This document shows, one piece after another, positions 10,653 to 64,000 of a stretch of 64,000 bases of DNA. The translations under genes and the position numbers were made by a program. The notes under the pieces are model-generated. The model worked only from the letters and a program-made list of their open reading frames with translations. It was not told the DNA's origin and did no database searches. Position 1 is the first letter of the stretch. Every line of letters begins with the position of its first letter. Origin of the DNA: Caprella mutica (Eukaryota; Arthropoda; Malacostraca; Amphipoda; Caprellidae); NCBI GenBank assembly GCA_947561585.1, contig CANNZV010000257.1:248001-312000 (forward strand). The letters are read 5' to 3'.

Positions 10653-11115
10653 CATAATTGCATTCTTTACTCACCAGACGATAGGCTTTGAATTACCCAG
10701 CATTGCAATCTCTACTCACCAGACGATAGGCTTTGAATTACCCAGCATTGCAATCTGTACTCACCAGACGATAGGCTTTGAATTACCCAGCATTGCAATC
10801 TGTACTCACCAGACGATAGGCTTTGAATTACCCAGCATTGTAATCTCTACTCACCAGGCGATAGGCTTTGAATTACCCAGCATTGCAATCTCTACTCACC
10901 AGGCGATAGGCTTTGAATTACCCAGCATTGCAATCTCTACTCACCAGACGATAGGCTTTGAATTACCCAGCATTGCGATCTGTACTCACCAGACGATAGG
11001 CTTTGAATTAGCCAGCATTGCAATCTGTACTCACCAGACGATAGGCTTTGAATTACCCAGCATTGTAATCTCTACTCACCAGGCGATAGGCTTTGAATTA
11101 CCCAGCATTGTAAAC
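10653..11115. repeat. Minisatellite, 45-bp unit, 10 copies
   Basis: Exact 45-bp periodicity, shown by ATAGGCTTTGAATTACCCAG at 10681, 10726, 10771 and every 45 bp to 11086. Copies differ by single bases (CAGACG/CAGGCG, CAATCT/TAATCT). Confidence 0.95.
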
Positions 11116-20940: not shown

Positions 20941-21585
20941 GCAGTGCGCCTGTGTACTGACTGTGCGCCTGTGTTCTGACTGTGCGCCTGTGTACTGACT
21001 GTGCGCCTGTGTACTGACTGTGCGCCTGTGTACTGACTGTGCGCCTGTATACTGACTGTGCGCCTGTATACTGACTGTGCGCCTGTACACTGACAGTGCG
21101 CCTGTGTACTGACTGTGCACCTGTGTACTGACTGTGCGCCTGTATACTGACTGTGCGCCTGTATACTGACTGTGCGCCTGTGTACTGACTGTGCGCCTGT
21201 GTACTGACTGTGCGCCTGTGCACTGACTGTGCGCCTGTATACTGACTGTGCGCCTGTGTACTGACTGTGCGCCTGTGTACTGACTGCTGTGCCTATGTAC
21301 TGACTGTGCGCCTGTACACTGACTGTGCGCCTGTACACTGACAGTGCGCCTGTACACTGACAGTGCGCCTGTGTAGTGACTGTGCGCATGTGTACTGACT
21401 GTGCGCCTGTGTACTGACTGTGCGCCTGTGTACTGACTGTGTGCCTGTACACTGACTGTGCGCCTGTGAACTGACTGTGCGCCTGTGTACTGACTGTGCG
21501 CATGTGTACTGACTGTGCGCCTGTGTACTGATTGTGTGCCTGTGTACTGACTGTGCGCCTGTACACTGACTGTGCACCTGTCAGA
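20941..21585. repeat. Minisatellite, 19-bp unit, about 34 copies
   Basis: Unit TGCGCCTGTGTACTGACTG with TGTAT/TGTAC/TGTGC variants. Because 19 is not a multiple of three, the array reads through all three minus frames with one 19-residue repeat, giving long but meaningless ORFs. It is GC-richer than its surroundings. Confidence 0.95.
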
Positions 21586-23671: not shown

Positions 23672-24378
23672 GATGGTGTCGCAAATATTGATATGGTGTC
23701 GCAAATATTGATATGGTGTCGCAAATATTGATATGGTGTCGCAAATATTGATATGGTGTCGCAAATATTGATATGGTGTCGCAAATATTGATATAGTGTC
23801 GCAAAGGGATATGTTATCTTAAGTATTGATTTGATATCACAAATATGAATTTGGTTTCACAAATATGAATTTGGTTTCACAAATATGAATTTGGTTTCAC
23901 AAATATGAATTTGGTGTCACAAATATGAATTTGGTGTCGCAAATATGAATTTGGTGTCACAAATATGAATTTGGTGTCACAAATATGAATTTGGTGTCAC
24001 AAATATGAATTTGGTGTCGCAAATATGAATTTGGTGTCACAAATATGAATTTGGTTTCACAAATATGAATTTGGTGTCGCAAATATGAATTTGGTGTCAC
24101 AAATATGAATTTGGTGTCGCAAATATGAATTTGGTTTCACAATTATGAATTTGGTGTCGCAAATATGAATTTGGTGTCACAAATATGAATTTGGTGTCGC
24201 AAATATGAATTTGGTGTCACAAATATGAATTTGGTGTCGCAAATATGAATTTGGTTTCACAATTATGAATTTGGTGTCACAAATATGAATTTGGTGTCAC
24301 AAATATGAATTTGGTGTCGCAAATATGAATTTATGTCACAAGTATTAATTTGGTGTCACAAATAGGAATTTAGTGTGA
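23672..24378. repeat. Two abutting 20-bp minisatellites of related sequence
   Basis: From ~23672 to 23805 there are about seven copies of GATATGGTGTCGCAAATATT; from ~23828 to 24378 about 27 copies of GAATTTGGTGTCACAAATAT. Both share GGTGTCRCAAATAT, so one array seems to have switched unit. GTTTCAC, GTGTCAC and GTGTCGC variants are interleaved in short runs. Confidence 0.95.
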
Positions 24379-32436: not shown

Positions 32437-34728
32437 CTAGAGTTTTTCATATATATTGTAATTGTCATTGAAGAATTTAGCAGCTTCCATCATTTTCACA
32501 AGTTGACTCTGAAAAGTATACAAAATAAATTTTACAACATTTTTGCATGGACTCTAACAACAAATCTTGGAAATTAAATATCTAAACATTAGAAACAATA
32601 ATTCCTGCTGGTAAAACAAAAATAATAAAGATAGTTTATTGAATTTTAGGCTTTCATTTTCTTTTCAATCACAATGTATTAAGAAGCTAACATATCTATC
32701 AGTATAATAGATTATTTTATCTTTCAAAATTTCTTTATTAATGATGTTAGTCAAGAATCTGCAGTACAATTCCTCTAAAATTAAAATATTTAAATCAATT
32801 ATAAATCCAATAGAAAGTTAATACAACTTGAAATGATTACTATAAAAATTAATACTGCATAAGTTTTCAATAGATACTTTGATTTGATAATAAAATAATT
32901 AGATTACCTGATCCACGATGACATTAGGGTGACATCTTCTGAGCATGACTGCTGTCCTGTAAACATCAATGTCCTGGAACACCTTGAGTCTGTCGATAGT
33001 GTTGATGATGCCTATCATCAGACCACACGCTGTCACACCATCACTGTACAGGGGTAAGATGGGGGTAAAGAATGGTAATTATATTATTATTATACCATTA
33101 TTACCTATCATCAGACCACACGCTGTCACACCATCACTGTACAGAGATAAGATGGGCTAAAGAATGGTAATTATATTATTTGTCTAAATTACTGTTAACT
33201 AGCGGTACCTGTATATATTTCACGGTTTTATTACACTGATTGGTCAAATGTGTAGTATATTTTCAACTCAAATTGAAATTTTCATGAATTTGTTTGTAAT
33301 GGCTGAAGCGATATGTTGGTTACTAAAAATAACAGAATTTAACTAGATTTGCTCTTCCGTTTTTCTGTTTTTCATTTTTACCGGAGTTTTCACTTTTCCC
33401 TGATTTTTTGCTTTCCCAGAGTTTTTGGTTTCCGTTTATTTTGTTCTTCCGGATTTATTAGTTTTTCGTTTATCTGTGTTTTTCGGGTTTCGGAAATTAT
33501 ATCATGGATACTAATCGATATTGAAATTAAATAACAATAATTACATTTTATTTTTCCTCACATGATAGATAATGTGGTTCTGTCTGAAAAATCTGAGGTT
33601 GCTCTACAGCCCACATTTGGAAAATCTTTTGTTTTTAATATTTGCGCGAATGTTTTAATGTTAGGTTAAAAATCCAATTGCCAAATGTCACATATTACCG
33701 AATGAAAATGGAATTAAGACAAAAACAGAACCTTCCGCATATTTGCCATGGTAATATTTATTTTCGACCATATAGAAAATAATATTTAATTTACATTTTT
33801 TTTTTAAGGATAAAAAAAACAAGAAGGATAAAATCTTTACAGAAAAGGAAATTACTTCAGGAACTACGAGTGGGGGGTTGAGTTCCCTGAAGGGGTGGAC
33901 CCGACCCCCTAAAAACTCTCTTTCGTGGGTGAGAGGATGTTCAAGACTCCATTAGAACGATCAACAAGTTATGAGATACAACAAACAGCTATAAGGCTTA
34001 ATATCAAAATATTTACCAAAACATTTTTGCTCCTTATCAATAAATTACTTTTCTGGTCAGGGTTACATGCAGATTTGTAATGACTCACCCACACACGAAG
34101 AGAGGAGGCGTGGCATTCACATGGGAGAGCAAAATGTCTGCAACTCTCACAGATTCTGACAAATCACGAGGACAAGGAACACCACGCTTCCAGTTTTGAA
34201 CTTCGAAAACCTTGATTTCCTGAACTTCCTAAGGTGAAAATAAATAAAAATGAATATATTCCGAGTAAGTTCCTCATTAAATTGATTTCAAGTGTTGTAA
34301 CGATAAAACAATTGATAATAATTTACCCCCTTTCTGGAGTCAACAGTGATTTCTCTCTCTATCAAGTTAGTAGACAGAGAATTTATGCTGGTGCACTTGA
34401 TAACATTGCTGTCAACTTTAAAACTGCTGCCAACAACTGACGGGTAGAACTCGGGAAATTCCTGCAGAAAAAATATATTTCAACACAAATTTATTATAGC
34501 TATTCGTGTCTGTTAGAAATTGTAAGAATTGCTAAATTTTTAACTATAGCCAACCTCATCAAATTCTTTGTTCAGAACAACAATTTTGGAAGGTCTGTTC
34601 GCATGCACTAGATTCCAGAATTTGTCCAGATCATTCTTGAAAGGATGTTGAGTTGCAATGTATTCAACACCGATTTCCAAGCCTTGAAATTTTACAGCGT
34701 TGATGTATATATTTTCTCCATTTGAACC
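32437..34728 (-). CDS. Exons 33-37: PTP domain D2, degenerate, and C-terminus
   Basis: Five exons encode residues ~1634-1851. Family motifs: YINAVKFQG, EYIATQHPF, DKFWNLV, PSKIVVLN (matching YINA, IxTQxP, DFWRxV, xIVMLN of receptor D2 domains). The WPD loop is NWKRGVP (no Asp). The P-loop reads FVCGDGVTACG: C1782 (codon 34093-34091) is present, but A1788 (33030-33028) sits where the invariant Arg of C-x5-R should be. The chain ends shortly after the last helix, MMEAAKFFNDNYNIYEKL, then TAG at 32439-32437. D2 domains are commonly inactive in receptor PTPs and serve regulation or dimerisation. Confidence 0.88.
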
Positions 34729-37700
34729 CTACAAAAAAACATTGGAAATAATTAGTAATATTAAATATAAAGGAACAAATTACTTTTATTTTAAACGATA
34801 TCGACGATTACAATATTGATATTACTTGAATGTAGACACGATGCGCATCTGGAGCCAAGTATTGATAATTTCGATTACGACTCAAGTTATCAGGGTGATT
34901 TGCTGTGGAACAGTTCAGAGAGTTTGGAAGTCTTGCAAGTCGTTTATAGTTTTCGGAGCAATCTTTCTGGAGAGACTGCAGATTCTCACTGATTTCAGAC
35001 ACAGGGAATGAATTTTGGGTACCGTACAGCATTTCATCCAAGAGGTTTAAGCACAGCTTGAACTGCACTTGGTTTTCGATCAATCTGCCTCTATCTGACC
35101 TAAGTTGTCTGATAACTTTGAATATGTCGAGTGGCATTTTCTTGAGAAAATAGTCGTAGCAAATGAGACAGAAGAGAACTGTTCCAGTGCGCCCTATTCC
35201 TGCCGAGCCATGGACCACAGCATGAACTGTGATAGAAGACAATGAATTAACCTTCATCTTCAACTGCTAAATTAGTCATAATAACAACTTGTAAAGATAA
35301 TAATTATAACTAAAATATATTAATGACTGATTTACTATTATCGTGTTCAATCGCAATGTTCAGTATGATTTGAGAAAGAGTCTTTGTTTCAGTAGGAACT
35401 CCATGTTCAGGCCATTGAGTGAAATGGTAGTGGGTAACTTCACGTTGGACATATTTTTTGCCGACCAGAATTCGCACCTGTTAACGGAAATAGGAAAAAT
35501 ATATGAAGTGGAAGTGGTGATAATCTTTTTAAGTATATACATGCAGTTATTATTTAAATATTCAGTAGTTTTTTTTAATATCTTATGATCACTATTAATC
35601 AAATTAACTTTTCGAAGTTTTACTCATAATGTGCCATAAATACTACATTTCGATATATTCTTTATGAATTGTAATTAAAGAACAAATTTTATTACAAAAA
35701 ATGTATGAAATCAATACATAGATGTCTTTCAGAATAATCTCTTTCAGTATCCAAAGAATTACATAACGTAGAATGTAATGACAATTATACATAAGGCTAT
35801 TCCTAATTCATAAAGTAATAGTATTGTAAAAAGGGAAGAATACAAGTTAGTTACTGAAAATAGGTAAGATTCTATGTGATAAATGAATATAAATATATTA
35901 TATGACCTCATGCAATAAATGGATCTGATTGTTTAAGTGATTTGGTCACCTGGATAGTGGATATTGTGTAGAAAGATTCGATTTCACGCTTTACAACTGA
36001 AATGACGCCTTTGGGTGACTGAATTGGCAACGGGAATTCGGGACACATATATTCACCAACTTTCGCCTGGAATATTAACATCATTGAATCACCTTCAAAC
36101 AAGATTCTTAAGAAATAAAGCAAGAACAAAATATGAAACTATTATTTCTTTATTAGTAAATGCATTTTTGAAGAATACCGAACCCATACTCACAATTCCT
36201 TTTTCGATAAAGTTGGCAACCATAATAATCACGTTAACTTCTTGTTCAATAACCATCCTCCAAAAGTCATCGATTGTACAGTCATTGCAGTCTTTCGGAC
36301 CTTGAGACGCAATGTACCTCCTGTTCTTGGACACGCTCTGCAACCAGAGAAAATGTAGTCAAGAATATCGAATTATAGATGAGGAATTCAAACAGTAACC
36401 TCCACTTCAAATATTCAAAATAGTGTTTATAAAAATGAAGGGTTATCACAAGATTTACAATAAAAAATATGTTTATTTACCGTTATGTGGTTAGCATTTA
36501 TGTAGTCAGATGAAGGGTCTCCATCCCGGATTTTCAGTTTAACTCGAGTGTCATCGTCTGGTCAGAAAAAAGGAAACTGTTAACATAACTAACATTCACT
36601 AATTATTTGTGTTGTTTATTATATTTATTAACAAGAGGAAACTAAGAATAAATATGAGGAATAATACATAACCAAAATTAATAATGATGATTGTTTTAGA
36701 TAAATTTTGAATAAAATTAATTTACATAATCTGTTTTAAAATTCAATAGTAAAATAACTTTGAAAAGGAAACTATTGGGAATATAATGAATAAATATAAG
36801 TTAAATTTACTTTAGTATATAAGTTATTAAATCTCATTAAGATGTCAAAAAATAAATATAAATCAAATCAAAGAAGAATTTTAACCATTGACTGGATTTC
36901 AATTTTGCCCATCTGAAATGCTGACGACCAAAAGATGGTGAAATCTTATTTTTGTTACGATAGTTGGTGCTGACATTTTCTAAACATATTTATTATATAA
37001 TTATGCAAATTGGCAAATTAAGAATATTAAATACAAACATGGTAGATTGTTCTTGGAGCGGTTCTTCATTTTATTTTCATTGCTCTCTCCATCGTAGGTA
37101 GATTTTGGATAACATTTTGGAATTTCCTGCAAAAAAAAAAAAATATTAAGGTTTTGTTTATGTTCTATTCATCATTTCTCGATGGTAGAAATTATTTTAC
37201 TATACCTTGAACTTTTCAATTGCCCCATTAGAATTAATTAGGGAATGGAGATAGCCTTCCATGTTCACGAAAGACACTGCATCAACTTCTATTTCTTCCA
37301 TTTGAATTTCTACCTTTGGAATTCCTTCTATTGGAACTTCTGTAGAAGAAAAGGTTGGAAAGATAACGGATTTCGACATTTTAAAGTTTTTACTTCTCAG
37401 AAGCTTGGTTTTGGATAAATAAATAAGGAATATATTTTGAATATAGAAGCTACCTGTAAATGACTTTAAGATTTGAAGAGATATTAATTATTAGCGAGAA
37501 TGAAATATTCCAGTATAAATAGAAATTAATTATGAATATGATCATTAAATATAAATAATTTAATTCAAGAAACAAGCAAATTAGGTTAATAAATAATTAA
37601 GATAGTTTGAGGATCATCATTTTTGTGAAGGTTATCTTTGAAATTTAAACTTTTGCACATTTAGTCAACTTGGTCAACCTCAGATCCAATGTTTCAATTT

Positions 37701-40700
37701 CTGGTACGATAAGAATTCTTTCCCTCTCAAAACAAATATGATTTATTGATAAAAAATTAAGTCTCTAATTATTTATAATTTGGTCTGATTTACCATAGAT
37801 TGTTGATTCCAATTCACTGACATGCGTTCCTATATCTTCTTCTTGTTTTCTTTTTCTTCGGTAAACGAGAAATCTGTGAATGCATTAGGTATTTTATCCA
37901 TTAGGAAAATTATTTCATAAAAACCTTCGAATTAAAAAGTTTCCAAGTTATTTAGCGATAATATTTTATCCCACCGGTTTGGTCAGACATCTGAAATTCA
38001 CTTCAAAGTTCAAAATAACTTTATTTTTGATCACTCTTTTAATTACCCAATGGAAACTAGAGCGATTGCTACGAGAATAATGGTCAGGGGCACTATCCAA
38101 AGATTTTGATTAGGCTGATGAAGTGATCCACCAGCTGTGAAAGTTATTTTAGGTTCTTCCACTAGTAGCCGGTCATCTGAAAAAGTGATGAGAATATCAT
38201 GAAAAAACAACCGATCACTATTATATAATTTACTCTTAACTTCATCAAAATTGTTACACTTACTGTTTAGTTTGAGTTCAATGAGGGGGATAATAGAATA
38301 TACCTCTCCACAAATAAGAGGTGGATTGTTAGGTGAGTCACCTGAGCCAACTGTGAATTCTCTGTTGTTCTGAAGGAATGAAATTAATTTCAAACTTGTT
38401 CTGCTAATCCATATTTATCTAATCAGATGTAGGATAAGTTTGACAAATACAAAAATTTAACAAACCTCAACAACCCCGGCCACATATGATTTAGTTCCCG
38501 ATTCTTCTTCTCCTGAACGCTTCTTTCTCATTCTAGCTCTGTTGTATTCGTCATAAAGATCAGTAAAGTTTATCCTTTCTTCTCCATATCCTCTGACGAC
38601 AATGATGACCACATTTCTAGTTGGATGAAATTTCATTCAGTTGATTACTATTAATTTGATTTTTTTAAATATAACAATAACATATTATTTATAAATTGAA
38701 TAAGTTACACACATTGAGGAGTCTCCTGATTCGATTATTGGTATTTTGATTACTATTGTAGTATTGGTGATGGTGACTGATAAGAATTTATCAGTAAGCA
38801 CTGGTTCAGCCAGTTTCGTGTTAGTAGCTGTTTCTGCCACACTACTGCAAGCCTTTACGTTACAGCATCCACTTTTCACTAGATATTTGGAACTGGGTCT
38901 CAACCCGGTAAACTGAAAATAATAAGACAATTCAGTTTGACATATCAATCTCAAAATCATACTTGATAGTTCAATTAATTTATGTTTTCATAATTCCTAC
39001 AGTGAATGTGTATTCCTTCTGCGGAATGACTGAATGTTTGGAGCTATTTTGCTGAAGAAGACTCCCCTCATGCAAGCTAGTCCAGCAACTTGGTTGTTCA
39101 CCTAAGTACTGAGATGTAGTGACTACAACATCCATCACGTTAAGAGCGTTCATAGGCATCAGAGTGGGTTTACCTGGAGCTGAAATATTTAAAACAATAA
39201 TAGGTTTATTTCAGACTGTTTGTTCAGTTAATAATGAAAAAGTATATACCAATTTATTAAATGGAATATATTCTGAATATACTATACCTGTTGGTGTCGT
39301 CAATCCAAAAACAGTTTGTGAATCATCTGAACATTCACGTGCATCACTACTCTTGCAGCTCTGGACCTTGAAAATCGTTATGTTATGTTATGATAAAATG
39401 TGAATATTAAAAGTAGATAATAATAGAGAAGAAACATTTGAAAACTATACAATAAATTAAATTATCAAAACAATTCTGTCCATCATCTGATAAACATAAA
39501 GCTAACTTACTAATATTGTAAAATATATTTTGGACAACTAATTTTGTTCCGGGAAATTTCAATTTAATGTCATTACTCCCAACGGTGTTCCGATGTTCCT
39601 GCGCCTCTGTCTCTGTTCTAGTTTTTTATGAGATTTGCTGTGCAAATTTGTGTACTTAATATGCGCAGATGAGAACTCACGAGTGAACAGCTGAGATCTA
39701 ATTTTGTCTTATATTTTTAGATATATTAGCATTAATATTTTTTAGTGAATTAAAATAATCTAATTTACTGTGCAATAATAAACAGATAGGGGAAGTGAAC
39801 AGCAGATGTTATTATTAGTCATTTGGGGGGAGATTTTAATGTGAGACATGGAGAGGTGGAAGCAGAACATAATATCGTACTCTCATTTATTGGCAGTTGT
39901 AATGATGAAAATTGAAGGTGAAGTAAATAAATATTATATCAGATTTTGAAATAAAAACTCTACTCGTCAGTTCTATGGGACTTTTAAAAACAACTCAGAA
40001 AGAAAATTAAGAGGAAAACTGGGAAATACCAGTGAAGAAGAATAAAATGGACTTTCATCTCTCAAAATTGACTATCTTGCCTATAACTAATTATTCCACC
40101 TTCAATCTGTAGTTGACATTGAAGTTGAGATTTTCTAGCTGGTAGCAGATATAACCAACTGAGGATTCACAGAAGGATGTAGGATTTACAGTTTTTCTCT
40201 CCCACCTATTCTTGTTTCTGTAGCTGAGTTTGTAGGATTGAATTGAGGCGAGGGATGGACAGGGTATCAACCATTCCAAGAAGAGGGAATTGTTTGATGC
40301 TCCGCTAACTTTAAAATCTTGAACAACTGCTGGACCTGCATTTTTTTATATTTATGATAATTAGGAGTATCAAACGCGTCATTTTATAACAAAATTAAAT
40401 ATTAAATCATCAAACCTACTCTCTGCCTCCTTTGTAGAAAAGACACCCTCAGTAGATATAGATTGGCCAATGGAGTTCTCCAAATAGACCCTAATGGAGT
40501 ATCTTGTGTAGTCTTCCAAGATACTGAAATACTTTCTTAGAGCTGTGGAGTACGTGAATTTGTCCTCAATGATGTCTTCATATAGTGTGGCATTAGGACA
40601 TTTTGGTAATTTCTTTATTTTCCAAACCGATGTGATATTTGGACCATGAAACTTCTGACATTCAGATGCTATTTCAATATTACATTGTAGAGATTTATAT

Positions 40701-43700
40701 TGTGATGTAGGACTGCAACTCAGCTCTCGCCATTCTATATCAGGAACTGGAAAATATAAAAAGTCATGAACGGTGCGGTATATAATTATTTGTGTCTTCA
40801 CGTACTAAAAGGGAAGGTAGAAAATCGAATTAAGTTTTAAATAATATAGGCATCATTTATTATGTGATTTGTTATTTTTGGCCATCTAAATATCAATGAT
40901 TAAATAAATAGAGGTACAATTAATTTTTACATAGCGCCATTTTTGTCACCGATTTTCTTTTACAATCGTAGAGGCAGTACAGATTTGCATGAGGACGAGT
41001 GAAGAAATCGATTGTGGTGACACCTGATGGCGTCATGTGCAACATAAGAAAATTGTATTTAATAAGTAATGACGCAATTTTTAATTCAAATTAATTAATA
41101 ATTTGGTATTTTTCATTAATTAATAATTTAGTAAGTAATTGTTAACAGTATATTTAATAACAGTGTAAAAAAACATATTTTAAATAGAAAATGAAATAGA
41201 AAACAAATGAAATTTTTTTTATTTAAATATATAAATTTTTTATTAAATAAATAAAATTTACTGATATTACCTTATTCTATTCCATTTTACAATTTTTTCT
41301 ATTTAGAAAACAACTTTTAATACTTATTATTAAAGATGAAATAATAATTTTAATCAACATGTTTTTTGAATAACAGTATTATTAAATAAACTACTCTTAA
41401 GTTGTACTCCAACTCCACCAGGTGTCACCACAATCTTTTTCTTTTCTCGTCTTCACATCTTCTCGGTCCTCACGACAGAATAATACACTGGCTGTTTAAT
41501 TCGAATAAACTTTGTATTTACCAAAATATACAGTTATACACTCATTTTCAAAATTGTAATGCTAGAAATATTTTATTAGTTAATATAGTGTATAAAACTG
41601 AATATGTAATTCAAATTCTATTATCTATTGCATATTCACGCAGATAGTTTACATAATTCAAACGTAAATGAAGATTCAGGTTCATATAGCGGGATATAAT
41701 TTAAATAAATCCATCTACCGATCGTTCGATCAAACTTATGTTATCAATAAAACCCTTTTAGCTCTGAAAATAGAGTGATATTTGCCGAAATAATTATAAA
41801 TTTTATTGCATCCTGTAGATATTTAAAATATATGAACAATCCTAAATTAAATCATGATATAAAATATCATAATATGTCTCTATTGATTAATGATTATCCT
41901 TCATACTACGTTAATTTTTTTTAAAATAGCTCTTTAAAGTAATTTTTATTCTCGTGTAAGTATGGTGGAGTATCACTTACCTTCATTTGGAGGTGTGGAG
42001 AAGGTGTGACAAGTAGGTGTGGATTTACCTCCTCTATTCACTCCAACAACACAAACTTTGTACTTCGCAGAGTACCAAAAGTGATTATTGTAGTCAAGTA
42101 TCACCTCAGTGTCAGTCACTGCAACTGTTGTTACATTGGGACTAATCATGTACTGGCATCCAATGTATCGAACAAACTGAAAATTAAAATGTCTGTTACT
42201 ATCTTCTCAATAAGAAATGTATTTATTATCGTGATAGTTTGTTACATATTCATGAGTCTTACCTCCGTAGTTACTTCGTAGCTACTAGAATAATTAGCTT
42301 CATTCCATACGATGAGAGTTCTATCAGAGGTGACATTTTTTCGAATGTAGTCTGGAGACACGGGGGCTGTTGAAAAGAATTTAAAAGATTAAAAAAGTAG
42401 GATTGATTTCATAATTAATCCATTTATCATGTTTTTTGCAGATATTTTCTCTCTGACTATTTTTAATTTCAAATATCATATCTTATAAGTAAAAAACTAG
42501 TATTTTCTCTGAATATAACTAATTCCTGTCGATAATTGAAGCTTAATTTACGTTTGCAAATCGCTAAGATAGTAATGGTCAAAATCAAAGGAATTAACAA
42601 AATAAGTAAAAATTATTATATTTATGGAGAAAATATGAACGATTGAAAAATTTCATATCATATATGTTAATTTTATGTATTGAATTTCGATTTTCAAAAA
42701 CCTACTTAACGATATGATGTTTCAAAATATTTATCAATTTATTTTTCAAATCATACTATATACCAATAAAAATAAATAATATAAATTAGCAAATATATAT
42801 CAATTGAAGTAATATCTTGTTAGATAATGTTACACTAAGTAATGACATTTGCAATAACTATTCAATTTGTCTTTCATTAACGCAACACTGGGATTTAATA
42901 GGTTAAAATAGCCCATTATATTAAATGTGAACAATTTGTAAAAATATTTTTTGTTACGGTTGTCAACTGGTCATGAATTGATGACCTTGAAAACCTCATA
43001 TGGCATAAGTGAAATATTTATTAAGAATTGTAATAATAAAATATTAATTTTCCCTCTTCCTACGTAATGTTTAGAATGATTCACACAGCTTTTATTTCTT
43101 ACGATTTGGTAGCGTGGTAACAGTTTTCGTCTTGCCATCCAATGTTATTCGATAAAGAGTATCAGCTGTCAGACCATGGATTGTAAATTCTGCGAAGTAA
43201 CCGGATGTGTCAATTATGGTTTTTGCACCATCCATAACAAGGATAGGATACCTCACTCTGGGACAGAGTGGTCCATTTCTGTGTACCTGGTGATAAGAGA
43301 AAATCAACAACAGAACTCTTACTAAATCTCAAAGATTATAAACATGCATGGAAATATTACCCATTCAACAGTGACGGAAATCTGACCAATGTTAGTAACA
43401 TTGTAGTCAGCACTAGAGTACGTGTCTGTTAGAGGGAAATACATTAATAATAATAGCATAATTCAACAGAATAAACTTATAGTTAATGATATGTAATGCC
43501 GACACACACTTTGTTGTACTGTGCAAACACCGCAGGTACAGATGCGTCATTTGAGTTTTCTCTAAGAAAGGGCAGTTAACCCAGTCTGTACTCCCAAATG
43601 ACGCACCTGCACAGGTAATTCTATTGATTTAGCGTGATGTTGCTACATGCACGCTGTGACTTTATAAAGGAAATTATACAGCTTGACACTGCGTATTGAA

Positions 43701-46700
43701 GGAACATTTGTTATGTTTTAAGTCACTATGGAATAGATTTCACCGAATTTTATAGAATGTGAAATGAAATTTACACTTGAGTATATTTTATTTGAATATA
43801 ACAGTAACAATGATAACATGACAAGACTTTGTTTGAAATACTTACCACTGTGCAGTTCAAATAAACATTGATTTCAAATCAAAAAAAAATAATTTCAACT
43901 GAGTTATAGTTACCCAGACAAGGCAATGTTACATTATGGCTCTGTATTCTCATGTTATATCTCTCCGTTGCTTTTCCTCTGTTAGTCAAAATATTTAGTT
44001 TGATGTTGTAACTATTGCCTCTGAAGAAATCGTAACTGAACTCTGTGAGAAGAAATGAAGTTAAGATTAATATATTGTTAGATTAACTACCTCTTACATT
44101 ATCACGCTAGTGTCTGTTCAGGTAATTTGTCTACAAACCTCTTCGTTGTCCAGGGTAGGTAGGAATGTTTGCATTTTCACTGTGGGTGTATATATCTTCT
44201 ATCGATATTTCGTACCTGAACAGAAATATTTAATTTTTATGAAAATGAAAAGAAAATAGAAAGGCAAATAAAATAAGAACATTGATGGTAAATGATGGAA
44301 TGTAAGTTTTCTTTAATTAATGATGGTCTATAACTATTAATGTTATTATAATATATTTTTATACTATTTTCTTGAGATAAATTTTCTATTCAAGATAATC
44401 ACTGATGAAAATGATCTCTGCCATTACTCTTCGTGTATTTTACCAGTTTTTCTCACCTTAGTTCCCCGTCTGTGTCCGACAGCTCACCATCGTCATAATC
44501 TGAATCCCATTCGGAGAAAGTGACTGCACAGCCTCTGACGTCACAGTCAGTGATGAGGGGAGGCTTTCTAAATCTCGGTAAATTGAGAGGAGCTTTGTCT
44601 GACATTTTGGAGAGAGAAATTGTCTTTAGAATTGACTTACACGCCTCAGGAGTGACTTGGAATCACAAGAAATGCTACTGTTGTGAGGATGGACAAATGA
44701 AATATTCACATCTGAGGCCTTTTAAACATATTAGTTTTATAATTTAATCTACAATACAAACAAAATTGATACAAGTAATTATACTTTTATTTACCTTCAT
44801 TACAAAGATTTTCATTCTTGCATCTCTGATTACACCTGCCGTAACTGTCACAGGTGCCACCATTGCAATAATAACATCTGCTAAGACAGTCTGGTCCGTA
44901 ATTCCTAGCATCACATTCTATTGGAAAATGCCATTGGATTAAAAGATAGCCATAAATGTGTAAATTGAGGCCTCTTACTTGAGACTTTAATTCCTCTTTA
45001 AATTTTTTTAAATTTATGCATCTGAATTAACTCTATCTTACTTCTATTTTACACAAAAGTATTGGCATACGAATACAGGTAAGAAAGATTGATTTAACCA
45101 ATCCATACAATCGATTTAAATAAGCAATTTGTGTAATATTTAACTATACATAAAAATTGAAGAAGGTTGTACCACTCATTTTACTAAATAATATTTATAC
45201 ATTATAATAAAAGTACATTCCGAAGTCATTTATCTTTACTAAACAACTGACATATCATTTAAAACCACTCATGAAAATTCATCATAATTTATATCTCTAA
45301 TAATTGTCAATCGAAATTAAAGAACTATTATGTTTTTATATGAAGAGTAATCACCTGCAGCGCATCTTGGCGGCTTGAATCCTGGTTGACATGAGCAACC
45401 TTTCGGATCACGCAAACAGAACGTAAGGCCTTTACAGGTTCCACTTTTGTTTCCTCTCCACAATGAATGTATTCTGCTGCAGTCCAAGTGACATTCTGCT
45501 CCAAATTTATTGGCTGGGCAAACTTCGGGAATGAAAAGAAAATATCCGATAATTTGATTAAAGTTCTTTATATTCAATATTAACTCTCGCACTGTCATAT
45601 ATTTAACGGTAATTAGATATTAAGGTATCGTTGTTTACATATGTTTTTTTAGAGTAATTGTATTTAGATAACAGTAAAAGAGACTTGCAATTGATTTGAT
45701 TAGTCGGAAGTTAGCCTTTTTTATTCTTTGCTTAGAAAGTTGGAGGGTAGTAAAAAACACACACGAATAATTTTAAATAGATATTATCATAAATAAATAG
45801 AACTATAAAATGGTTTGCAGTTTTATAACCAGTAGGCTTAGATCTAATGAATAGAGTAAAGAAAATGTTCAGCATTGAAGGGATAATTAGTGGTTAGTGA
45901 TATTAACCTGACTAATATCATCAAATCATTTATTTAGTTCTTCATTTATTTAGTGACATTTCTGTATCCAAGAGAGAAAGAAGTGAGGGAGTGATAGAAA
46001 ATGGAGTGGGATTTTCCAATAATATCTTCCTCCTCTGGGATACATAACTTAGCATTAGGATGCATAACTTAGCCTTAGGATACATAACTTAGCCTTAGGA
46101 TACATAACTTAGCATTAAGATACATAACTTAGCCTTAGGATACATAACTTAGCCTTAGGATACATAACTTAGCATTAAGATACATAACTTAGCCTTAGGA
46201 TACATAACTTAGCCTTAGGATACATAACTTAGCCTGGTGGTTTAGAAAAATGAACAATGAAATCAAGATAATAAATACAATATGTGTTTTCAGAACAATA
46301 ATAATCGGAATTAATTCAAGAATGTAAGATATTAGGAATGAACGTAGTAAAACTCCTATCATGCGACACTTTCTCAACTCTATGTTCAATCGACCAGTAG
46401 CCTCAATTAAGTACTTGCTGAAAACATTTGAAAAAAATAGTTAGCTGCTGAATTTACTGAAGTAACATAGGGTTTTATATTCCAAACCAATATATAAGGA
46501 GGAAAAAAATGAATTGAAATAAAATTAATGGAATTTTGACAGAAAATCTTAAATAATAAATGTTATATTTCAACATAACCTGTTCATCATATATACGTCC
46601 GACTAAAATATTATAACTTTTTGTATCTTTGCTTTCTACGATGGTAGTTTGTGTTGTTCTTGAGATGATTTGCAATAATATTTTCAAAGAGAGGTTTCAC

Positions 46701-49700
46701 TTTCTATTTTAGTATAAAGCATCATAACCTGTTAATCGCAACTATGGTTCATATTATTAATTAGTAAGATGCTACGATATCGAACTCACAGTTTTGGCAG
46801 TTCTTGCCCCTGGTGCCGGAAGAACAGACGCATTCTCCAGTGTCCGAATCGCACTCTCCGTTGTTGAGACAATCTCTACACCAGCCAGAGCAATTGGCCC
46901 CAGAACGACCCTTCTTGCACCCTGAGTCATTAATTAGAGAGATTTGAAAAAAAAGTCCGAATTAATTGATTCATCAAGTAATTCAGACTTCTATATTCAG
47001 TTATATAAAAGGAAGATGAAAAAAAAAGAATAAAAGATTTTACTGAGAAGAAATAAACTTGGTGAATTCAATCTAGGAAAGGATGAAGAATAAAATATTA
47101 TTAGGTAGTTTTGAAATGACTATTAACGCGTTTTAAATAAATCCAATTTTATATAAGAACGAAACTTTTTTAGGTTATTTGTTCTTTTCACTAATGTATA
47201 ACTTGATAAAAGGAGTTATATTTGCAAGTTATTCTCACCTCTCACAATTAGTCGGGAATAGGCTTGGTAAAAACTATTACTATGACTGTTATACAGTCCC
47301 TGGTCAGAGAGAGAGACATTAGTTATCTCTATATCACTTCCTTGTACTGTGCCGGAGATGGGAGAGGGAGGCAATCTGACAGGACTGATGTTGTACCAAC
47401 TTCTATCGATGTACTGCAGTTTAACTGATTCTTCTAAACTGGCAGTGACAGTTGGATAGATAGCTTCAAACTTATCTGAAATTTCAGACAGTTAATAACA
47501 TGATGAATGAGTTTATTAAATGCCACCTAGGTAATGAATCTATAGATTTGCATTTCTTGACATTGCTTAGAAAAACTCGGAATACTGTATTTCCTTAGTA
47601 AATGCTGGGGAAAACCTAAAGTAATAATTATTGAATGTTTTAAGTTCCGTTTGATTTTACGATTACGAACTTAGCCTCTGCTATTCAAACAATAAAACAA
47701 ACAAATCCTTCTCAAACTGTTCGAAAAAATTCATAATAATGTCAGATGGACACTAACATTAACATCGGAAAATAATAGACTAATTAGCTCTCAAAAATAT
47801 TGTATGATTACAGAAAAGAGTATCGGTTTAATGAATCAAGGATATTGTTTAGAATTAACATTTAATAACTAATTGGCAAATAATAATTCTGCCACTTTAT
47901 TATTCAAAAAATTATAATCAATTAATAATGTAAAAAGGAATACAATTTTAGTGAGTGCAGACAGCATATCATCACAATGGTTGGTTATTATTTTCATTGT
48001 TGAAGTACATTTCAATAAAAAAAAACTGATAAAATGTTTATTCAAACCACATCGAGGAATCATAAAATGCAATATAACATTGAAATAACCCTTTCAATGT
48101 TACTTAAAAGGGAATACCACAGATATCTGTCCTACACTGAGAAAAATAAACAACTCCAACTGATGCACTCAGGTGTTTCGAGTTCACCCTATGGCTTTGT
48201 CTCTAAAGCAAGACACTTTAGTGCATCCAAACTATAGTTTGGATGCACTAAAGTGCATCAGTTCGATGCATTTAGTGTCTCAGCTATAAGTTTGTTAAAT
48301 TGACGAGGAAATTATTTTCATCATTTTAACAAAGGAAAATTTGTGACACTAAAATGCATCGAACTGATGCACTTTCGAACTTTAGTGCATCCAAACTATA
48401 GTTTGATGCACTAAAGTGTTTCGCTTTAGATACCAAGCCATAGGGTGAACTTGAAGCAGCTGAGTGCATCAGAATTTCTCTGAGTGTATTTACCATTAGT
48501 AAACCCAAAGATAGCAGTGATGTCCATATCAATGTTTGGCCCCATGCATCTAAGTACGCGAATACCACTTGTTGTTGATTCTATTCTCAGTGCGTTAATA
48601 CTTGCATGTTCACTGTCTTCGAATATATCATCATACAGTAGTCTGCCGTAACTCCATTTAGTGATATTTGGCTTTGCAGATGAGCTTCTCAAAGTTTCCT
48701 GGCTATTTGGTAAGCAAGTGACATAAGCGTCTGTTCTCCCTGACTGCTGATTGTTGTTATGAACCATGACCAACTCATCGGTACCTGCACCTGTGAATAT
48801 CTTCATTGTTAAAGAGAATAAATTTTAAATATTTTAACAATATAGAATTTCTGCTTAATTATTAACCTACTTATAAATTGTTTTAGAAATTAAATATACA
48901 ATAGTTTTTGTCCTCTCAAAATAAATTTACCGAAAATCTTAATAATCGTTTACCTTTAAATTTTTAAAAGTAGATTGTTATTTCTAATATCTTACATTTC
49001 CAGTTAGATATTAGAAAATATTATATTCAACATTCTTGATGGTAATTGATCTTCATTTGTATTAATACCATCAGTGTAGAGTGATGGTAATCTATTATTA
49101 CCATCAGTGTAGAGTAATGGTAATCTATTATTACCATCAGTGTAGAGTAATGGTAATCTATTATTACCATCAGTGTAGAGTAATGGTAATCTATTATTAC
49201 CATCAGTGTAGAGTAATGGTAATCTATTATTACCATCAGTGTAGAGTAATGGTAATCTATTATTACCATCAGTGTAGAGTAATGGTAATCTATTATTACC
49301 ATCAGTGTAGAGTAATGGTAATCTATTATTACCATCAGTGTAGAGTAATGGTAATCTATTATTACCATCAGTGTAGAGTAATGGTAATCTATTATTACCA
49401 TTAGTGTAGAGTAATGGTAATCTATTATTACCATTAGTGTAGAGTAATGGTAATCTATTATTACCATCAGTGTAGAGTAATGGTAATCTATTATTACCAT
49501 CAGTGTAGAGTAATGGTAATCTATTATTACCATCAGTGTAGAGTAATGGTAATCTATTATTACCATCAGTGTAGAGTAATGGTAATCTATTATTACCATC
49601 AGTGTAGAGTAATGGTAATCTATTATTACCATCAGTGTAGAGTAATGGTAATCTATTATTACCATCAGTGTAGAGTAATGGTAATCTATTATTACCATCA

Positions 49701-52700
49701 GTGTAGAGTAATGGTAATCTATTATTACCATCAGTGTAGAGTAATGGTAATCTATTATTACCATCAGTGTAGAGTAATGGTAATCTATTATTACCATCAG
49801 TGTAGAGTAATGGTAATCTATTATTACCATCAGTGTAGAGTAATGGTAATCTATTATTACCATTAGTGTAGAGTAATGGTAATCTATTATTACCATTAGT
49901 GTAGAGTAATGGTAATCTATTATTACCATCAGTGTAGAGTAATGGTAATCTATTATTACCATCAGTGTAGAGTAATGGTAATCTATTATTACCATCAGTG
50001 TAGAGTAATGGTAATCTATTATTACCATCAGTGTAGAGTAATGGTAATCTATTATTACCATCAGTGTAGAGTAATGGTAATCTATTATTACCATTAGTGT
50101 AGAGTAATGGTAATCTATTATTACCATTAGTGTAGAGTAATGGTAATCTATTATTACCATTAGTGTAGAGTAATGATAATCTATTATTACCATTAGTGTA
50201 GAGTAATGGTAATCTATTATTACCATTAGTGTAGAGTAATGGTAATCTATTATTACCATTAGTGTAGAGTAATGGTAATCTATTATTACCATTAGTGTAG
50301 AGTAATGGTAATCTATTATTACCATTAGTGTAGAGTAATGGTAATCTATTATTACCATTAGTGTAGAGCAATGGTAATCTATTATTACCATTAGTGTAGA
50401 GTAATGGTAATCTATTATTACCATTAGTGTAGAGTAATGGTAATCTATTATTACCATTAGTGTAGAGTAATGGTAATCTATTATTACCATTAGTGTAGAG
50501 TAATGGTAATCTATTATCACCATCAGTGTAGAGTAATGGTAATCTATTATTACCATTAGTGTAGAGTAATGGTAATCTATTGTTTGTAATTTATTTTTCT
50601 GGGGCAAGAGACTGTAAACATAAACTTTAAATGTTGAACTATAATAATTCCGCTGTATTTAGTAATCACTTTATAATATAGGGGTATGATTAACTTGTCC
50701 CCTTTTAGGGTAAGTTCCGAGTTATTGTACGGTTTATATTTTCTACCAAATAATAAATAACTCCTGAAAATGCTCTGGTAGAAGATAGAAAATAAGCAAA
50801 GTGAAATGAGGGACTGTGGGACACTCAGTTGGTGAGGAGAGCAGATGATATTAGTGCTGATGTGGCTAGTGAGCATTGGCAAAAATGTATGCAAATACTA
50901 ACTGAAAAAAGGAAATTGTTGTTCACTGTTTATTACAGAGAAAAATTATTTAATAAGTTCCACTCAGTGCAAAATATCGTTCAAGAGAACATTTCATTAC
51001 GAATGTTTTCAGCAGAAAATAAAATTTAAACACAAAAAATAATTATTGGTAATTAAAAATGTAATAAAATATAAAGAAAATTTGAATGAATGAGCCAGCA
51101 TTCAATTTTAAAACTCACGATCAGTCTGAACGAATCTCTCGTTTGTGAAATGAAATCCTATGTCTTCTTCCCTGCAATAAAGATATTGTAATCATTCTTA
51201 TTTCGAATATATCCTATTTAATTAGTTCTCAAATTTGTATCATCCAATATTGGCAATAATATTAAAATCACCATTGTGAAATATTTACTCTAATATTATA
51301 ATTCAGTAACGGATTTACTTGTTTCCGGAGATTACTCTGTTAGAAATTGTTCCAACAAACGTTTCTTGCGTTGCAGTCTGGGTGGAATTTAACGGACTTG
51401 GGGCACCAATGCGTGCTACTCCAGCATGTAGAGCAGAGAGACAGATTAGGGAGTCCTGAAATTAAATAGATAATCACTACACAAATTACTATAACTTAAT
51501 CTATTTTGATCTAACTAATGATATAATTTCAATAATTTGCATGTAAGATAGTTTGAAATCTCACCGGGTGGTACACTGATGTGCCAAAAACAACATCCCT
51601 GTTTTTAAATGGCCACCTTATGCATTCTTCAGGACAACTGGAAATGAATAGAAAGAGAAACTGTCAGCAGAAAAATATAATATTCAGTTGCACAGTTGAA
51701 GAAAAAACCAACTGTGATAACTTATAAACTATTTGATAATTTTCCCTTTTAAAACTGAAACTTTACAACTAGTGAAGACGGTACATAACATAAGCCTAGA
51801 CTGTAAACAAATTTACAATATTTGAAAATGAAAATACCAAAAAGGAATATCATGATTGAATTGGAAAATATATGCACATTTTTCTGAGTTTCCTTCTAAA
51901 TAATTTTCATACCTCAGAAAAAATTAATATTGAATAATTTTCATACGTTAGTGAAAAAATAAATTTCAGTCGGTGTTACAAATTGACGATATGAAAGTAT
52001 TATTATACATTGAAAATCCTAACGTTTATCTCCTTTTTAATATTAATTTGAAGTGTACGATAATTGTACATGTAATATAACATTACGATCATTTTCGAAT
52101 ATATTTTCATCGTATAAAGTTTTCTATCATATTCTCTAATAAAATCTAATCACTGCTGAACATTACGTCAGACATAAAATGGAGGACATGTTGAGACAGT
52201 CGGTAGATGGTAAGGAAGGAACTAAAACGAAATATAGATTTTCTAATTATTGTCTGATAATCATGAAGTTAATGATAAAGACCAAAGATTATTATGTTAA
52301 ATTTTTCTGCATTAGAAGTATTCGTATTTTTATGTATTTTGTACAAGCACACTTTTAACACCGTTTACTATAATCACAATTGCATCAATATACATGGATT
52401 TATTTTTTGAATCTTTCAAATAGACAAATACGATTTTTTTTTTAATTCAAGGAGTTACTAGTTTTTAAGATACATTGATTTAAAGTTAGGTTTCATAACT
52501 TTTTTGATCCACCCTGTATATAATTTTTCTCAATATTAGCTAGAATTAAAGATATGTACTTTATACTTGGTAAATATGGTACCAATCGATGTGTTTTATC
52601 CAATTTAATTTATAATCTATGGATCAAATCAACACACAATTATATTATAAGTAAGGGGATTAGTAGTTTTGAAATGTAATATATTTATCCTCTGTTTCAC

Positions 52701-56118: not shown

Positions 56119-56455
56119 AAGGTATATTCCACGGCGGTATATTCCACCCTGGTATATTCCACCCCGGTAAGTTCCACCCTGGTACATTCCACCCCGGTAT
56201 ATTCCACCCCGGTAAGTTCCACCCTGATATATTTCACCCTGGTATTTTCCACCCTGGTATATTCCACCCCGGTAAGTTCCACCCTGGTACATTCCACCCT
56301 GGTATATTCCACCCTGGTATATTCCACCCCGGTAAGTTCCACCAGGTAAGTTCCACCCCAGTATATTCCACCCCAGTATATTCCACCCCGGTATATTCCA
56401 ACCCGGTATATTCCATCCCGTTAAGTTCCACCCTGGTATTTTCCACCCCAGTGAA
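56119..56455. repeat. Minisatellite, 15-bp unit, about 22 copies
   Basis: Unit GGTATATTCCACCCC with AAGTTC, ACATTC and ATTTTC variants in the middle. A multiple of three, so open in several frames on both strands. Its style (short unit with a variable centre) matches the termini of the fold-back-like elements. It sits between a TA-flanked MITE (55632-55945) and a SINE-like copy. Confidence 0.95.
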
Positions 56456-59869: not shown

Positions 59870-60382
59870 TCAATCTTCTATGGCCCCACCATAACTTTCT
59901 CTCTCAATCTTCTATGGCCCCACCATAACTTTCTCTCTTAATCTTCTATGGCCCCACCATAACTTTCTCTCTTAATCTTCTATGGCCACACCATAACTTT
60001 CTCTCTTAATCTTCTATGGCCCCACCATAACTTTCTCTCTTAATCTTCTATGGCCTCACCATAACTTTCTCTCTTAATCTTCTATGGCCCCACCATAACT
60101 TTCTCTCTTAATCTTCTATGGCCTCACCATAACTTTCTCTCTTAATCTTCTATGGCTCCACCATAACTTTCTCTCTTAATGTTCTGTGGCCCCACCATAA
60201 CTTTCTCTCTTAATCTTCTATGGCCCCACCATAACTTTCTCTCTTAATCTTCTATGGCCCCACCATAACTTTCTCTCTTAATCTTCTATGGCTCCACCAT
60301 AACTTTCTCTCTTAATCTTCTATGGCCCCACCATAACTTTCTCTCTTAATCTTCTATGGCCCCACCATAACTTTCTCTCTTT
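59870..60382. repeat. Minisatellite, 34-bp unit, 15 copies
   Basis: Unit contains CTTCTATGGCCCCACCATAA then CTTTCTCTCTTAAT. The same GCCCCACCATAACTTT sequence occurs as one arm of stand-alone hairpins at 12704-12780 and 27137-27212, and the array begins right after an inverted copy (59842-59875). Confidence 0.95.
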
Positions 60383-62998: not shown

Positions 62999-63357
62999 TC
63001 TTCGATAAATTGCCCTATTTCTAAATCAAATCTATGTAAACACTGATTAAAAGTTTTCCCGGCACCTAAACTAAATACAAGGAACCTATTGTTTCAATGA
63101 ATAAATAAAGATATTTGAATAATTTCCTCTTCAAAAGGTCACTAACTTAATATAAAACAATACATATTACTCTTTATACTTTTTTAATAATTTCTACAAA
63201 CTAAACTTTCGAAAGTGTATAAAAAATAACTAAAAATGTTAGTTTATATATACTTTATTAACTATTAGCATATATAAACTAATAAAAAAAATTATCACTA
63301 AGCTTTCTCTTTACGAAATTTGAAGTTTGTAACTTCTGAGAGTCAATCAACGGTAAA
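62999..63357. repeat. Interspersed repeat, copy 2, leading into the terminal minisatellite
   Basis: Same repeat as 30286-30650. Its last bases, CAATCAACGGTAAAGTAACC, are where the 25-bp array begins; in copy 1 the same position reads CAATCAACGGGAAAGTGACT and is not amplified. Confidence 0.8.
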
Positions 63358-64000
63358 GTAACCAGAGGTAAAGTAACCAAAAGTAACCAGAGGTAAAGTA
63401 ACCAGAAGTAACCAGAGGTAAAGTAACCAAAAGTAACCAGAGGTAAAGTAACCAAAAGTAACCAGAGGTAGGGTAACCAAAAGTAACCAGAGGTAAAGTA
63501 ACCAAAAGTAACCAGAGGTAAAGTAACCAAAAGTAACCAGAGGTAAAGTAACCAAAAGTAACCAGAGGTAAGGTAACCAAAAGTAACCAGAGGTAAGGTA
63601 ACCAAAGTAACCAGAGGTAAAGTAACCAAAAGTAACCAGAGGTAAAGTAACCAAAAGTAACCAGAGGTAAGGTAACCAAAAGTAACCAGAGGTAAAGTAA
63701 CCAAAAGTAACCAGAGGTAAAGTAACCAAAAGTAACCAGAGGTAAGGTAACCAAAAGTAACCAGAGGTAAAGTAACCAAAAGTAACCAGAGGTAAAGTAA
63801 CCAAAAGTAACCAGAGGTAAAGTAACCAAAAGTAACCAGAGGTAAAGTAACCAAAAGTAACCAGAGGTAAAGTAACCAAAAGTAACCAGAGGTAAAGTAA
63901 CCAAAAGTAACCAGAGGTAAAGTAACCAAAAGTAACCAGAGGTAAGGTAACCAAAAGTAACCAGAGGTAAGGTAACCAAAAGTAACCAGAGGTAAAGTAA
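63350..64000. repeat. Minisatellite, 25-bp unit, about 26 copies, runs off the window
   Basis: Unit GGTAAAGTAACCAAAAGTAA plus CCAGA, with AGGTAAGG variants; it continues past the end. It starts directly at the end of an interspersed repeat (62999-63357). The three ~200-codon minus ORFs over it are artefacts of a stop-free unit. Confidence 0.95.

What the first reader, a model, noticed from the sequence alone, without database searches (positions are those of the whole stretch)
34826..36557. D1 phosphatase domain has Gly in place of the catalytic Cys, plus three more active-site changes
Seen directly: HGSAGIGRTG (Gly codon GGC at 35209-35207), WPE at 35414-35406, KNRS in the pTyr loop, and IENQVQF in the Q-loop. 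Everything structural around them is well conserved (YINA, ASQGP, DFWRM, GIGRTG with the Arg kept). Family knowledge: the Cys is the nucleophile and the WPD Asp the general acid, and STYX carries the same Cys-to-Gly change as a natural pseudophosphatase. Inference: D1 still binds phosphotyrosine or partners but does not catalyse. Four independent changes with an intact frame argue for selection on a non-catalytic role.
Basis: partly seen in the sequence, partly recalled or inferred. Interest (0 to 1): 0.88.

Follow-up and report, generated by a model that had tools for sequence, protein, structure and literature searches.

The report
Expanded family of dead phosphatase receptors
This is a cell-surface receptor whose phosphatase domain has lost its catalytic cysteine; most copies of this receptor in the same crustacean-like animal share that loss while a few sister copies keep the active site, so it looks like a real, maintained, non-enzymatic receptor rather than an error or a dead gene.

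Summary
In detail: GGC (Gly) at 35209-35207, WPE, KNRS and IENQVQF lie in an intact gene (37 exons, GT-AG, 1832 aa) encoding an LCCL-EGF-fn3 ectodomain, a membrane helix and tandem PTP domains. It is no error: the genome holds 23 copies of the D1 P-loop exon: 18 Gly, 1 Ser, 4 Cys. Four crustacean relatives keep Cys, so Cys was lost. Among 40 D1 columns conserved in 102 active-type D1s and in three Cys copies, changes in 14 Gly/Ser copies pile up in the Cys (14), the nearby Ala (10) and the WPD Asp (8); the P-loop Arg never changes. Purifying selection continues (median dN/dS 0.35). The Q-loop change is family-wide, not a loss; with the pTyr-loop Tyr gone, phosphotyrosine binding is doubtful. 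D2 also lacks Arg and WPD. Best reading: a catalytically dead receptor, PTPRU-like in logic, competing with or scaffolding for active sister receptors that share nearly the same ectodomain. New variant of a known kind; activity untested.

The parts
32437..53040 (-). whole gene (coding span), 37 exons, receptor protein of 1832 aa
   Evidence: intact splice model, all internal junctions GT-AG; Pfam LCCL, fn3, Y_phosphatase x2
52907..53040 (-). exon 1: start codon and hydrophobic signal-like peptide
   Evidence: signal peptide judged by eye
51119..51637 (-). exons 2-4: most of the LCCL domain (residues 29-114)
47239..47475 (-). exon 6: Ig-like domain (by eye; no Pfam match)
   Evidence: not reached by Pfam
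44795..46921 (-). exons 7-9: three EGF-like repeats of Tie-receptor type (by eye; no Pfam match)
   Evidence: Tie-1/Tie-2 hits with residues 1-640; exon 7 has 51 matches in the genome
38466..44598 (-). exons 10-22: fn3-type repeats
   Evidence: two stretches pass; exon 17 has 47 matches
38047..38176 (-). exon 24: transmembrane helix LWIVPLTIILVAIALVSIG
   Evidence: by eye
34826..37126 (-). exons 27-32: PTP domain D1 (Pfam 1309-1543) and the start of D2
37055..37066 (-). pTyr loop KNRS (Tyr to Ser)
35406..35414 (-). WPE (general-acid Asp to Glu)
35183..35212 (-). P-loop HGSAGIGRTG; catalytic Cys replaced by Gly (GGC 35209-35207), Arg kept
35060..35080 (-). Q-loop IENQVQF; family-wide variant, second Gln kept
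32437..34728 (-). exons 33-37: rest of PTP domain D2; Cys kept but Arg lost in VCGDGVTACG, no WPD (NWKRGVPCP)
   Evidence: same in the Cys copies; P0001 has CCADGVTACG

Best explanation
The gene encodes a type-I membrane receptor whose two tandem PTP domains keep the fold but should not catalyse: D1 has lost the nucleophile (Cys to Gly), has a weakened acid (WPD to WPE) and lacks the pTyr-stacking Tyr, and D2 lacks the P-loop Arg and the WPD motif. It is one of about 15 Gly-bearing loci (18 copies before removing likely alleles) that descend from a Cys-bearing receptor and were multiplied by tandem and dispersed duplication. I think the dead receptors act on the live ones: they share almost the same ectodomain with three Cys/WPD/KNRY loci on contig C41, so they could occupy the same ligand, form mixed dimers, or hold the same cytoplasmic partners without removing phosphate, lowering or redirecting the output of the live receptors. 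Shown: loss of the catalytic residues, kinship, retained constraint, similar ectodomain exons. Inferred: lack of activity in the protein, and competition or scaffolding as the mechanism.
For: 18 Gly, 1 Ser, 4 Cys among 23 of 23 copies read; outgroups P0001-P0004 all HCSAGIGRTG and WPD; 2 state changes on the tree. Of 40 otherwise fixed D1 columns, changes in 14 Gly/Ser copies: Cys 14, Ala 10, WPD Asp 8, five others 1-2 each, 32 none, P-loop Arg none; in the 10 more divergent copies Cys 10, Ala 9, Asp 5. Median dN/dS 0.35 over 45 pairs for D1 and for D2; codon model better at omega 0.35 than 1 for D1 (lnL -4104.8 against -4152.1) and at 0.5 than 1 for D2 (-2490.5 against -2514.2, kappa fixed). 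Ectodomain about as conserved as the phosphatase: EGF exon 7 98-100% identical to the C41 copies, fn3 exon 17 84-89% for the three C41 copies beside a PTP, exon 32 86-87%. Precedent: PTPRU, dead D1 and D2, binds substrates of active sisters (PMC7320164, passages).
Against: No expression, protein or activity data. With the trait positions masked the Gly/Ser group is not a supported clade; a tree that holds it is slightly better and not rejected (p-AU 0.70), and the four Cys rows also form one side of a branch (71/99), so the topology alone does not show that the Cys copies are ancestral; that rests on the outgroups, whose branches are long. A second loss or gene conversion is possible. 26 of 51 EGF matches lie on contigs with no exon-29 or exon-32 match, so other tails may matter as much. 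One Gly copy (C1407) has stops and shifted exons, so some copies are decaying. Ligand and partners are unknown.
Confidence: 0.58

Rival explanations
1. STYX-like phosphotyrosine reader: D1 still binds pTyr proteins through the intact Arg and P-loop backbone and shields them.
For: The window copy keeps Arg, Ala and the GxGRTG backbone; STYX has Gly for Cys and a Gly-to-Cys change restores its activity, so its pocket is intact (PMC8269279, passages).
Against: pTyr-stacking Tyr lost in 14 of 19 readable copies, by Ser, Asn or Cys; P-loop Ala replaced in 13 of 18 Gly copies, 10 times by Glu. Selection does not seem to guard the pocket.
Confidence: 0.2
2. Decaying genes: catalysis was lost and the copies drift neutrally in a duplication-prone array.
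For: Pocket residues erode in several lines; C1407 has stops and shifted exons.
Against: 19 of 20 copies with exons 28-35 recovered have no stop there (in 4 of the 19 one or two exon borders had to be moved by 1-9 bases to a splice site); 23 of 23 exon-32 matches free of stops; omega about 0.35-0.5, well below 1; 32 of 40 conserved D1 columns untouched in 14 copies.
Confidence: 0.08
3. Assembly or base error, or an alternative exon with Cys.
For: None found.
Against: Gly in 18 copies on 11 contigs, GGC or GGT; the likely allelic copy on C318, 99.1% identical over 9.9 kb, has the same codon; no second P-loop in the window.
Confidence: 0.02
4. Changed specificity: D1 is active on another substrate (for example lipids) with a different nucleophile, or D2 works.
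For: WPE occurs in the lipid phosphatase PTPRQ (PMC7320164, passages); D2 keeps a Cys.
Against: D1 has no Cys at the nucleophile position; D2 lacks Arg and WPD, as it does in the Cys-bearing copies.
Confidence: 0.04

Closest known systems
PTPRU (human R2B receptor pseudophosphatase; PMC7320164, passages)
   Same: Receptor with tandem PTP domains, both inactive; WPE and an altered KNRY loop; active close paralogues exist.
   Different: PTPRU keeps the catalytic Cys; here Cys itself is gone and the dead form is a multigene array. Ectodomains differ (LCCL-Ig-EGF-fn3 here; MAM type in R2B, recalled).
STYX (DUSP pseudophosphatase; PMC8269279, passages)
   Same: Gly in place of the catalytic Cys, P-loop Arg kept.
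   Different: STYX is a dual-specificity-type protein without receptor parts (recalled); here a receptor-type classical PTP with WPE and KNRS in addition.
Malacostracan LCCL-type RPTPs (P0001 Penaeus japonicus, P0002 Oratosquilla, P0003 Petrolisthes; P0004 Procambarus lacks a listed LCCL)
   Same: Similar ectodomain plan, degenerate D2 (CCADGVTACG in P0001), same Q-loop variant; 26-40% identity.
   Different: 4 of 4 keep HCSAGIGRTG and WPD, with KNRY or KNRF.
Python PTPRV-like P0058 and Zophobas P0024
   Same: Other receptor-type PTPs with the Cys replaced: HGSAGVGRTG with WPN in P0058, HSEEGCGRTG in P0024.
   Different: Single sequences in this search, far relatives; not shown here to form an array.
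Tie-1/Tie-2 receptor kinases
   Same: EGF-like repeats are the nearest vertebrate match to the ectodomain (37-43% over 25-32% of residues 1-640 in the better Tie hits).
   Different: Kinase, not phosphatase, inside; no LCCL among the Pfam domains listed for them.

Membership tests
Tandem receptor-type PTP | Ectodomain, one TM helix, two PTP domains D1-D2 | tested here: met
   (TM by eye)
Tandem receptor-type PTP | Catalytic HCX5R in D1 | tested here: not met
   HGSAGIGR. Related by sequence and descent, not filed as an enzyme
Malacostracan LCCL-RPTP family | LCCL, EGF and fn3 ectodomain joined to D1-D2 with a DGVTACG-type D2 | tested here: met
   (EGF by eye)
Pseudophosphatase (PTP superfamily) | PTP domain by profile with catalytic residue(s) lost by sequence | tested here: met
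Pseudophosphatase (PTP superfamily) | No measurable activity | not testable with these tools
   needs protein
PTPRU-like receptor pseudophosphatase | Both D1 and D2 degenerate, WPE, altered KNRY | tested here: met
PTPRU-like receptor pseudophosphatase | Orthology with R2B receptors | tested here: inconclusive
   no tree with R2B was built; nearest proteins are crustacean LCCL receptors, best-scoring solved chain is PTPRA
STYX-like pTyr reader | Cys to Gly with Arg kept | tested here: met
   23 of 23 copies keep Arg, 18 have Gly
STYX-like pTyr reader | Binds phosphorylated ligand | not testable with these tools
   loss of the pTyr-loop Tyr argues against

The most novel reading that the evidence does not exclude
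A paired-receptor system built on tyrosine phosphatases: one surface-receptor family of about 50 ectodomain copies (alleles not removed) in which a few members carry a live phosphatase tail, many carry a dead one, and many may carry no phosphatase at all, with copy number differing between haplotypes (two copies on C257 against five on C318, counting the matching end copies). The dead and tail-less members would be built-in competitors of the live ones, in the manner of immune or self-recognition receptor families.
Probability: 0.27. Interest if true: 0.86.

Novelty: new variant of a known kind. Interest (0 to 1): 0.7.

Why it matters
The pseudophosphatases in the passages I read (STYX, PTPRU) are single genes. 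Here a dead receptor phosphatase has been multiplied into an array while live-type copies of the same receptor persist in the genome, and the course of decay (Cys in every dead copy; the neighbouring Ala, the pTyr loop and the WPD Asp in part of them; most of the fold untouched) can be read from sister copies. That makes the question of what a receptor phosphatase does without catalysis directly testable by comparing closely related live-type and dead natural proteins.

Tried and rejected
Rejected: base error or alternative exon; pseudogene for this copy; Q-loop as a further loss; kinase tails in the PTP-less copies (of the contigs carrying ectodomain matches only C276 has a kinase match, about 57-74 kb away on the other strand; 135 of 554 candidates scored, so this is weak). 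Single origin of WPE: not decided (p-AU 0.233). Naming the species failed: the COX1 search did not complete; nearest proteins are malacostracan crustaceans. Structure prediction was not run: spliced proteins are not read letter for letter from the DNA, which its stated rule asks for. Searches with the TM exon, the D2 exon 36, exon 5 and exon 23 did not complete. No paper on such an array was seen in ten searches (listings; passages of PMC8269279 and PMC7320164); this does not show that none exists.

Full report
What is there. The minus strand of the window carries a gene, 53040 to 32437, that I modelled by hand from reading frames and splice sites: 37 exons, every internal junction AG/GT, 1832 codons without a stop. 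Pfam finds an LCCL domain (residues 29-114), fn3 (two stretches) and two Y_phosphatase stretches. By eye there are also a signal-like peptide, an Ig-like exon, three EGF-like exons and a membrane helix. A search with residues 1-640 finds a Hyalella azteca protein first (P0121, 34% over 86% of that part, no PTP domain listed, possibly a truncated model) and then Tie-1/Tie-2 receptors.

The active site. Against solved PTPs the Gly sits on the catalytic Cys, the Glu on the WPD Asp, the Ser on the KNRY Tyr. D2 has VCGDGVTACG and NWKRGVPCP where HCX5R and WPD would be: it keeps a Cys but lacks Arg and WPD. The Penaeus relative P0001 has CCADGVTACG in D2 and LVENQAQY in the Q-loop, so this D2 form and the Q-loop Glu are family traits, present in relatives whose D1 has Cys and WPD.

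Not an error, but a family. The window is part of a 903-Mb assembly of 7200 contigs. A protein search with exon 32 finds 23 copies (40 of 40 candidates scored), none with a stop inside. I read the P-loop in all 23: the window and 20 loci, C280 and C558 from fetched loci. Eighteen have Gly (GGC, or GGT in C318f and C558), one Ser (AGC, C815), four Cys (TGC: three on C41, one on C4206). WPE is found in 11 of 23, WPD in 12. The pTyr residue could be read in 19: Tyr in the four Cys copies and C1407, Ser in 8, Asn in 3, Cys in 3. The P-loop Arg is kept in 23 of 23. The P-loop Ala is kept in the four Cys copies and five Gly copies (window, C318a-d) and replaced in the other 14, by Glu in 10 and by Asp, Lys, Gly or Val in one each.

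Alleles and copy number. Window and C318a are 99.1% identical over 9.9 kb, C257b and C318e 97.8% over the 8 kb aligned, C41c and C4206 98.0%, C583 and C809 95.0% over 6.2 kb; these are probably alleles, the last pair less surely, leaving about 19 loci: 15 Gly, 1 Ser, 3 Cys. The two C257 copies lie 34.8 kb apart with no further exon-32 match between; the matching C318 copies lie 131.9 kb apart with three more between. That is either a copy-number difference between haplotypes or an assembly artefact.

History. With four crustacean outgroups the tree of D1-D2 exons 28-35 (24 rows; C809 left out as incomplete, C280 and C558 not included) puts the 16 Gly/Ser rows in one group, support 100/99, with two state changes, Cys to Gly and Gly to Ser. 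With the P-loop and WPD positions masked that node is not supported; holding the 16 together gives a slightly better likelihood and is not rejected (p-AU 0.70), and the four Cys rows also form one side of a branch, 71/99. So one loss is the simplest but not a proven history. A single origin of WPE is neither shown nor rejected (p-AU 0.233). The four outgroups, on long branches, all have Cys, so the direction is read as loss.

Constraint. Of 48 D1 columns at least 90% conserved in 102 Cys- and WPD-bearing D1s from the homologue search, 8 deviate in the three Cys copies compared and 40 do not. In those 40, among 14 Gly/Ser copies (three of them near copies of the window, and the probably decaying C1407 included), the changes are: Cys 14, Ala 10, WPD Asp 8, one further column 2, four columns 1 each, none in the other 32, including the P-loop His, Gly and Arg, WP and the last Gln. 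In the 10 more divergent copies alone: Cys 10, Ala 9, Asp 5. The decay is aimed mainly at the chemistry and not at the fold. Pairwise dN/dS among 10 Gly/Ser copies (45 pairs; exons of unequal length dropped per pair; the other copies left out as near-duplicates, incomplete or decaying) has median 0.35 for D1 and 0.35 for D2, against 0.28 and 0.31 for three Cys-Cys pairs. A codon model on 12 Gly/Ser copies, kappa fixed at 2, gives D1 lnL -4104.8 at omega 0.35 and -4152.1 at 1; D2 -2490.5 at 0.5 and -2514.2 at 1. Gene conversion between copies may blur both. Of 20 copies with exons 28-35 recovered, 19 have no stop there, in 4 of these after moving one or two exon borders by 1-9 bases to a splice site; C1407 has stops and shifted exons.

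The ectodomain side. EGF exon 7 has 51 matches (69 of 69 scored) and fn3 exon 17 has 47 (48 of 48), against 23 close copies of exon 32 and of exon 29 (exon 29 also has 5 weak matches). The EGF exon of the C41 copies is 98-100% identical to the window's. Of the 51 EGF matches 26 lie on contigs where neither exon 29 nor exon 32 is found; contig breaks, allelic duplicates and unlike tails can all contribute. A 1.5-kb stretch from C150 shows an EGF and a following ectodomain exon but says nothing about the tail. No kinase match was found within 50 kb of such copies (135 of 554 candidates scored, weak).

How it most likely works. Loss of catalysis in D1 is expected from general PTP chemistry: the Cys is the nucleophile. 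In PTPRK an Asp-to-Glu change of WPD alone lowers turnover about 115-fold, and PTPRU, with dead D1 and D2, is proposed to compete for substrates of its active sisters (PMC7320164, passages). The window receptor goes further, lacking the Cys itself. Because live-type and dead copies share nearly the same outside, the most economical mechanism is interference or scaffolding at the level of ligand, dimer or docking partner. pTyr reading as in STYX (PMC8269279, passages) stays possible for the window copy, which keeps Ala and Arg, but the missing Tyr and the Glu in most sister P-loops speak against it as the general purpose. None of this has been tested in protein.

Taxon. The best proteins are from a shrimp, a mantis shrimp, a porcelain crab, a crayfish and an amphipod, at 26-40% identity; the host is probably a crustacean, species unknown.

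Noticed in passing
49060-50581: 46 copies of a 33-bp unit, 98% matching, in intron 4 of my gene model; open on the minus strand for 543 codons.
   Followed up: no
33136-33104: The first 33 bases of exon 36 (D2 P-loop half) with the acceptor AG before them are repeated in the intron just upstream; a similar double start is seen in L044.
   Followed up: partly
G000 contigs C257 and C318 (L031-L036): Likely haplotypes with two against five tandem receptor copies, counting the matching end copies.
   Followed up: partly
G000 contigs C150, C40, C155, C1475, C3121 and others; L051: 26 of 51 EGF-exon matches lie on contigs without a detected exon 29 or 32; their cytoplasmic tails are unknown.
   Followed up: partly
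L038 and L039 (C41b, C41a), around exons 32-33: An 887-bp block holding the P-loop exon is 95.7% identical while other aligned blocks are 81-94%: looks like gene conversion among Cys copies.
   Followed up: no
L044 (C1407): A Gly copy that still has KNRY and WPD but carries a stop in exon 31 and shifted exons: probably a decaying copy.
   Followed up: partly
P0058 (Python bivittatus), P0024 (Zophobas morio): Other receptor-type PTPs with the Cys replaced: HGSAGVGRTG with WPN, and HSEEGCGRTG.
   Followed up: no
825-1507, 10657-11110, 20944-21581, 23674-24376, 56121-56449, 59872-60381, 63355-64000: Long tandem arrays with units of 15-45 bp, several giving long reading frames that are probably spurious.
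   Followed up: no
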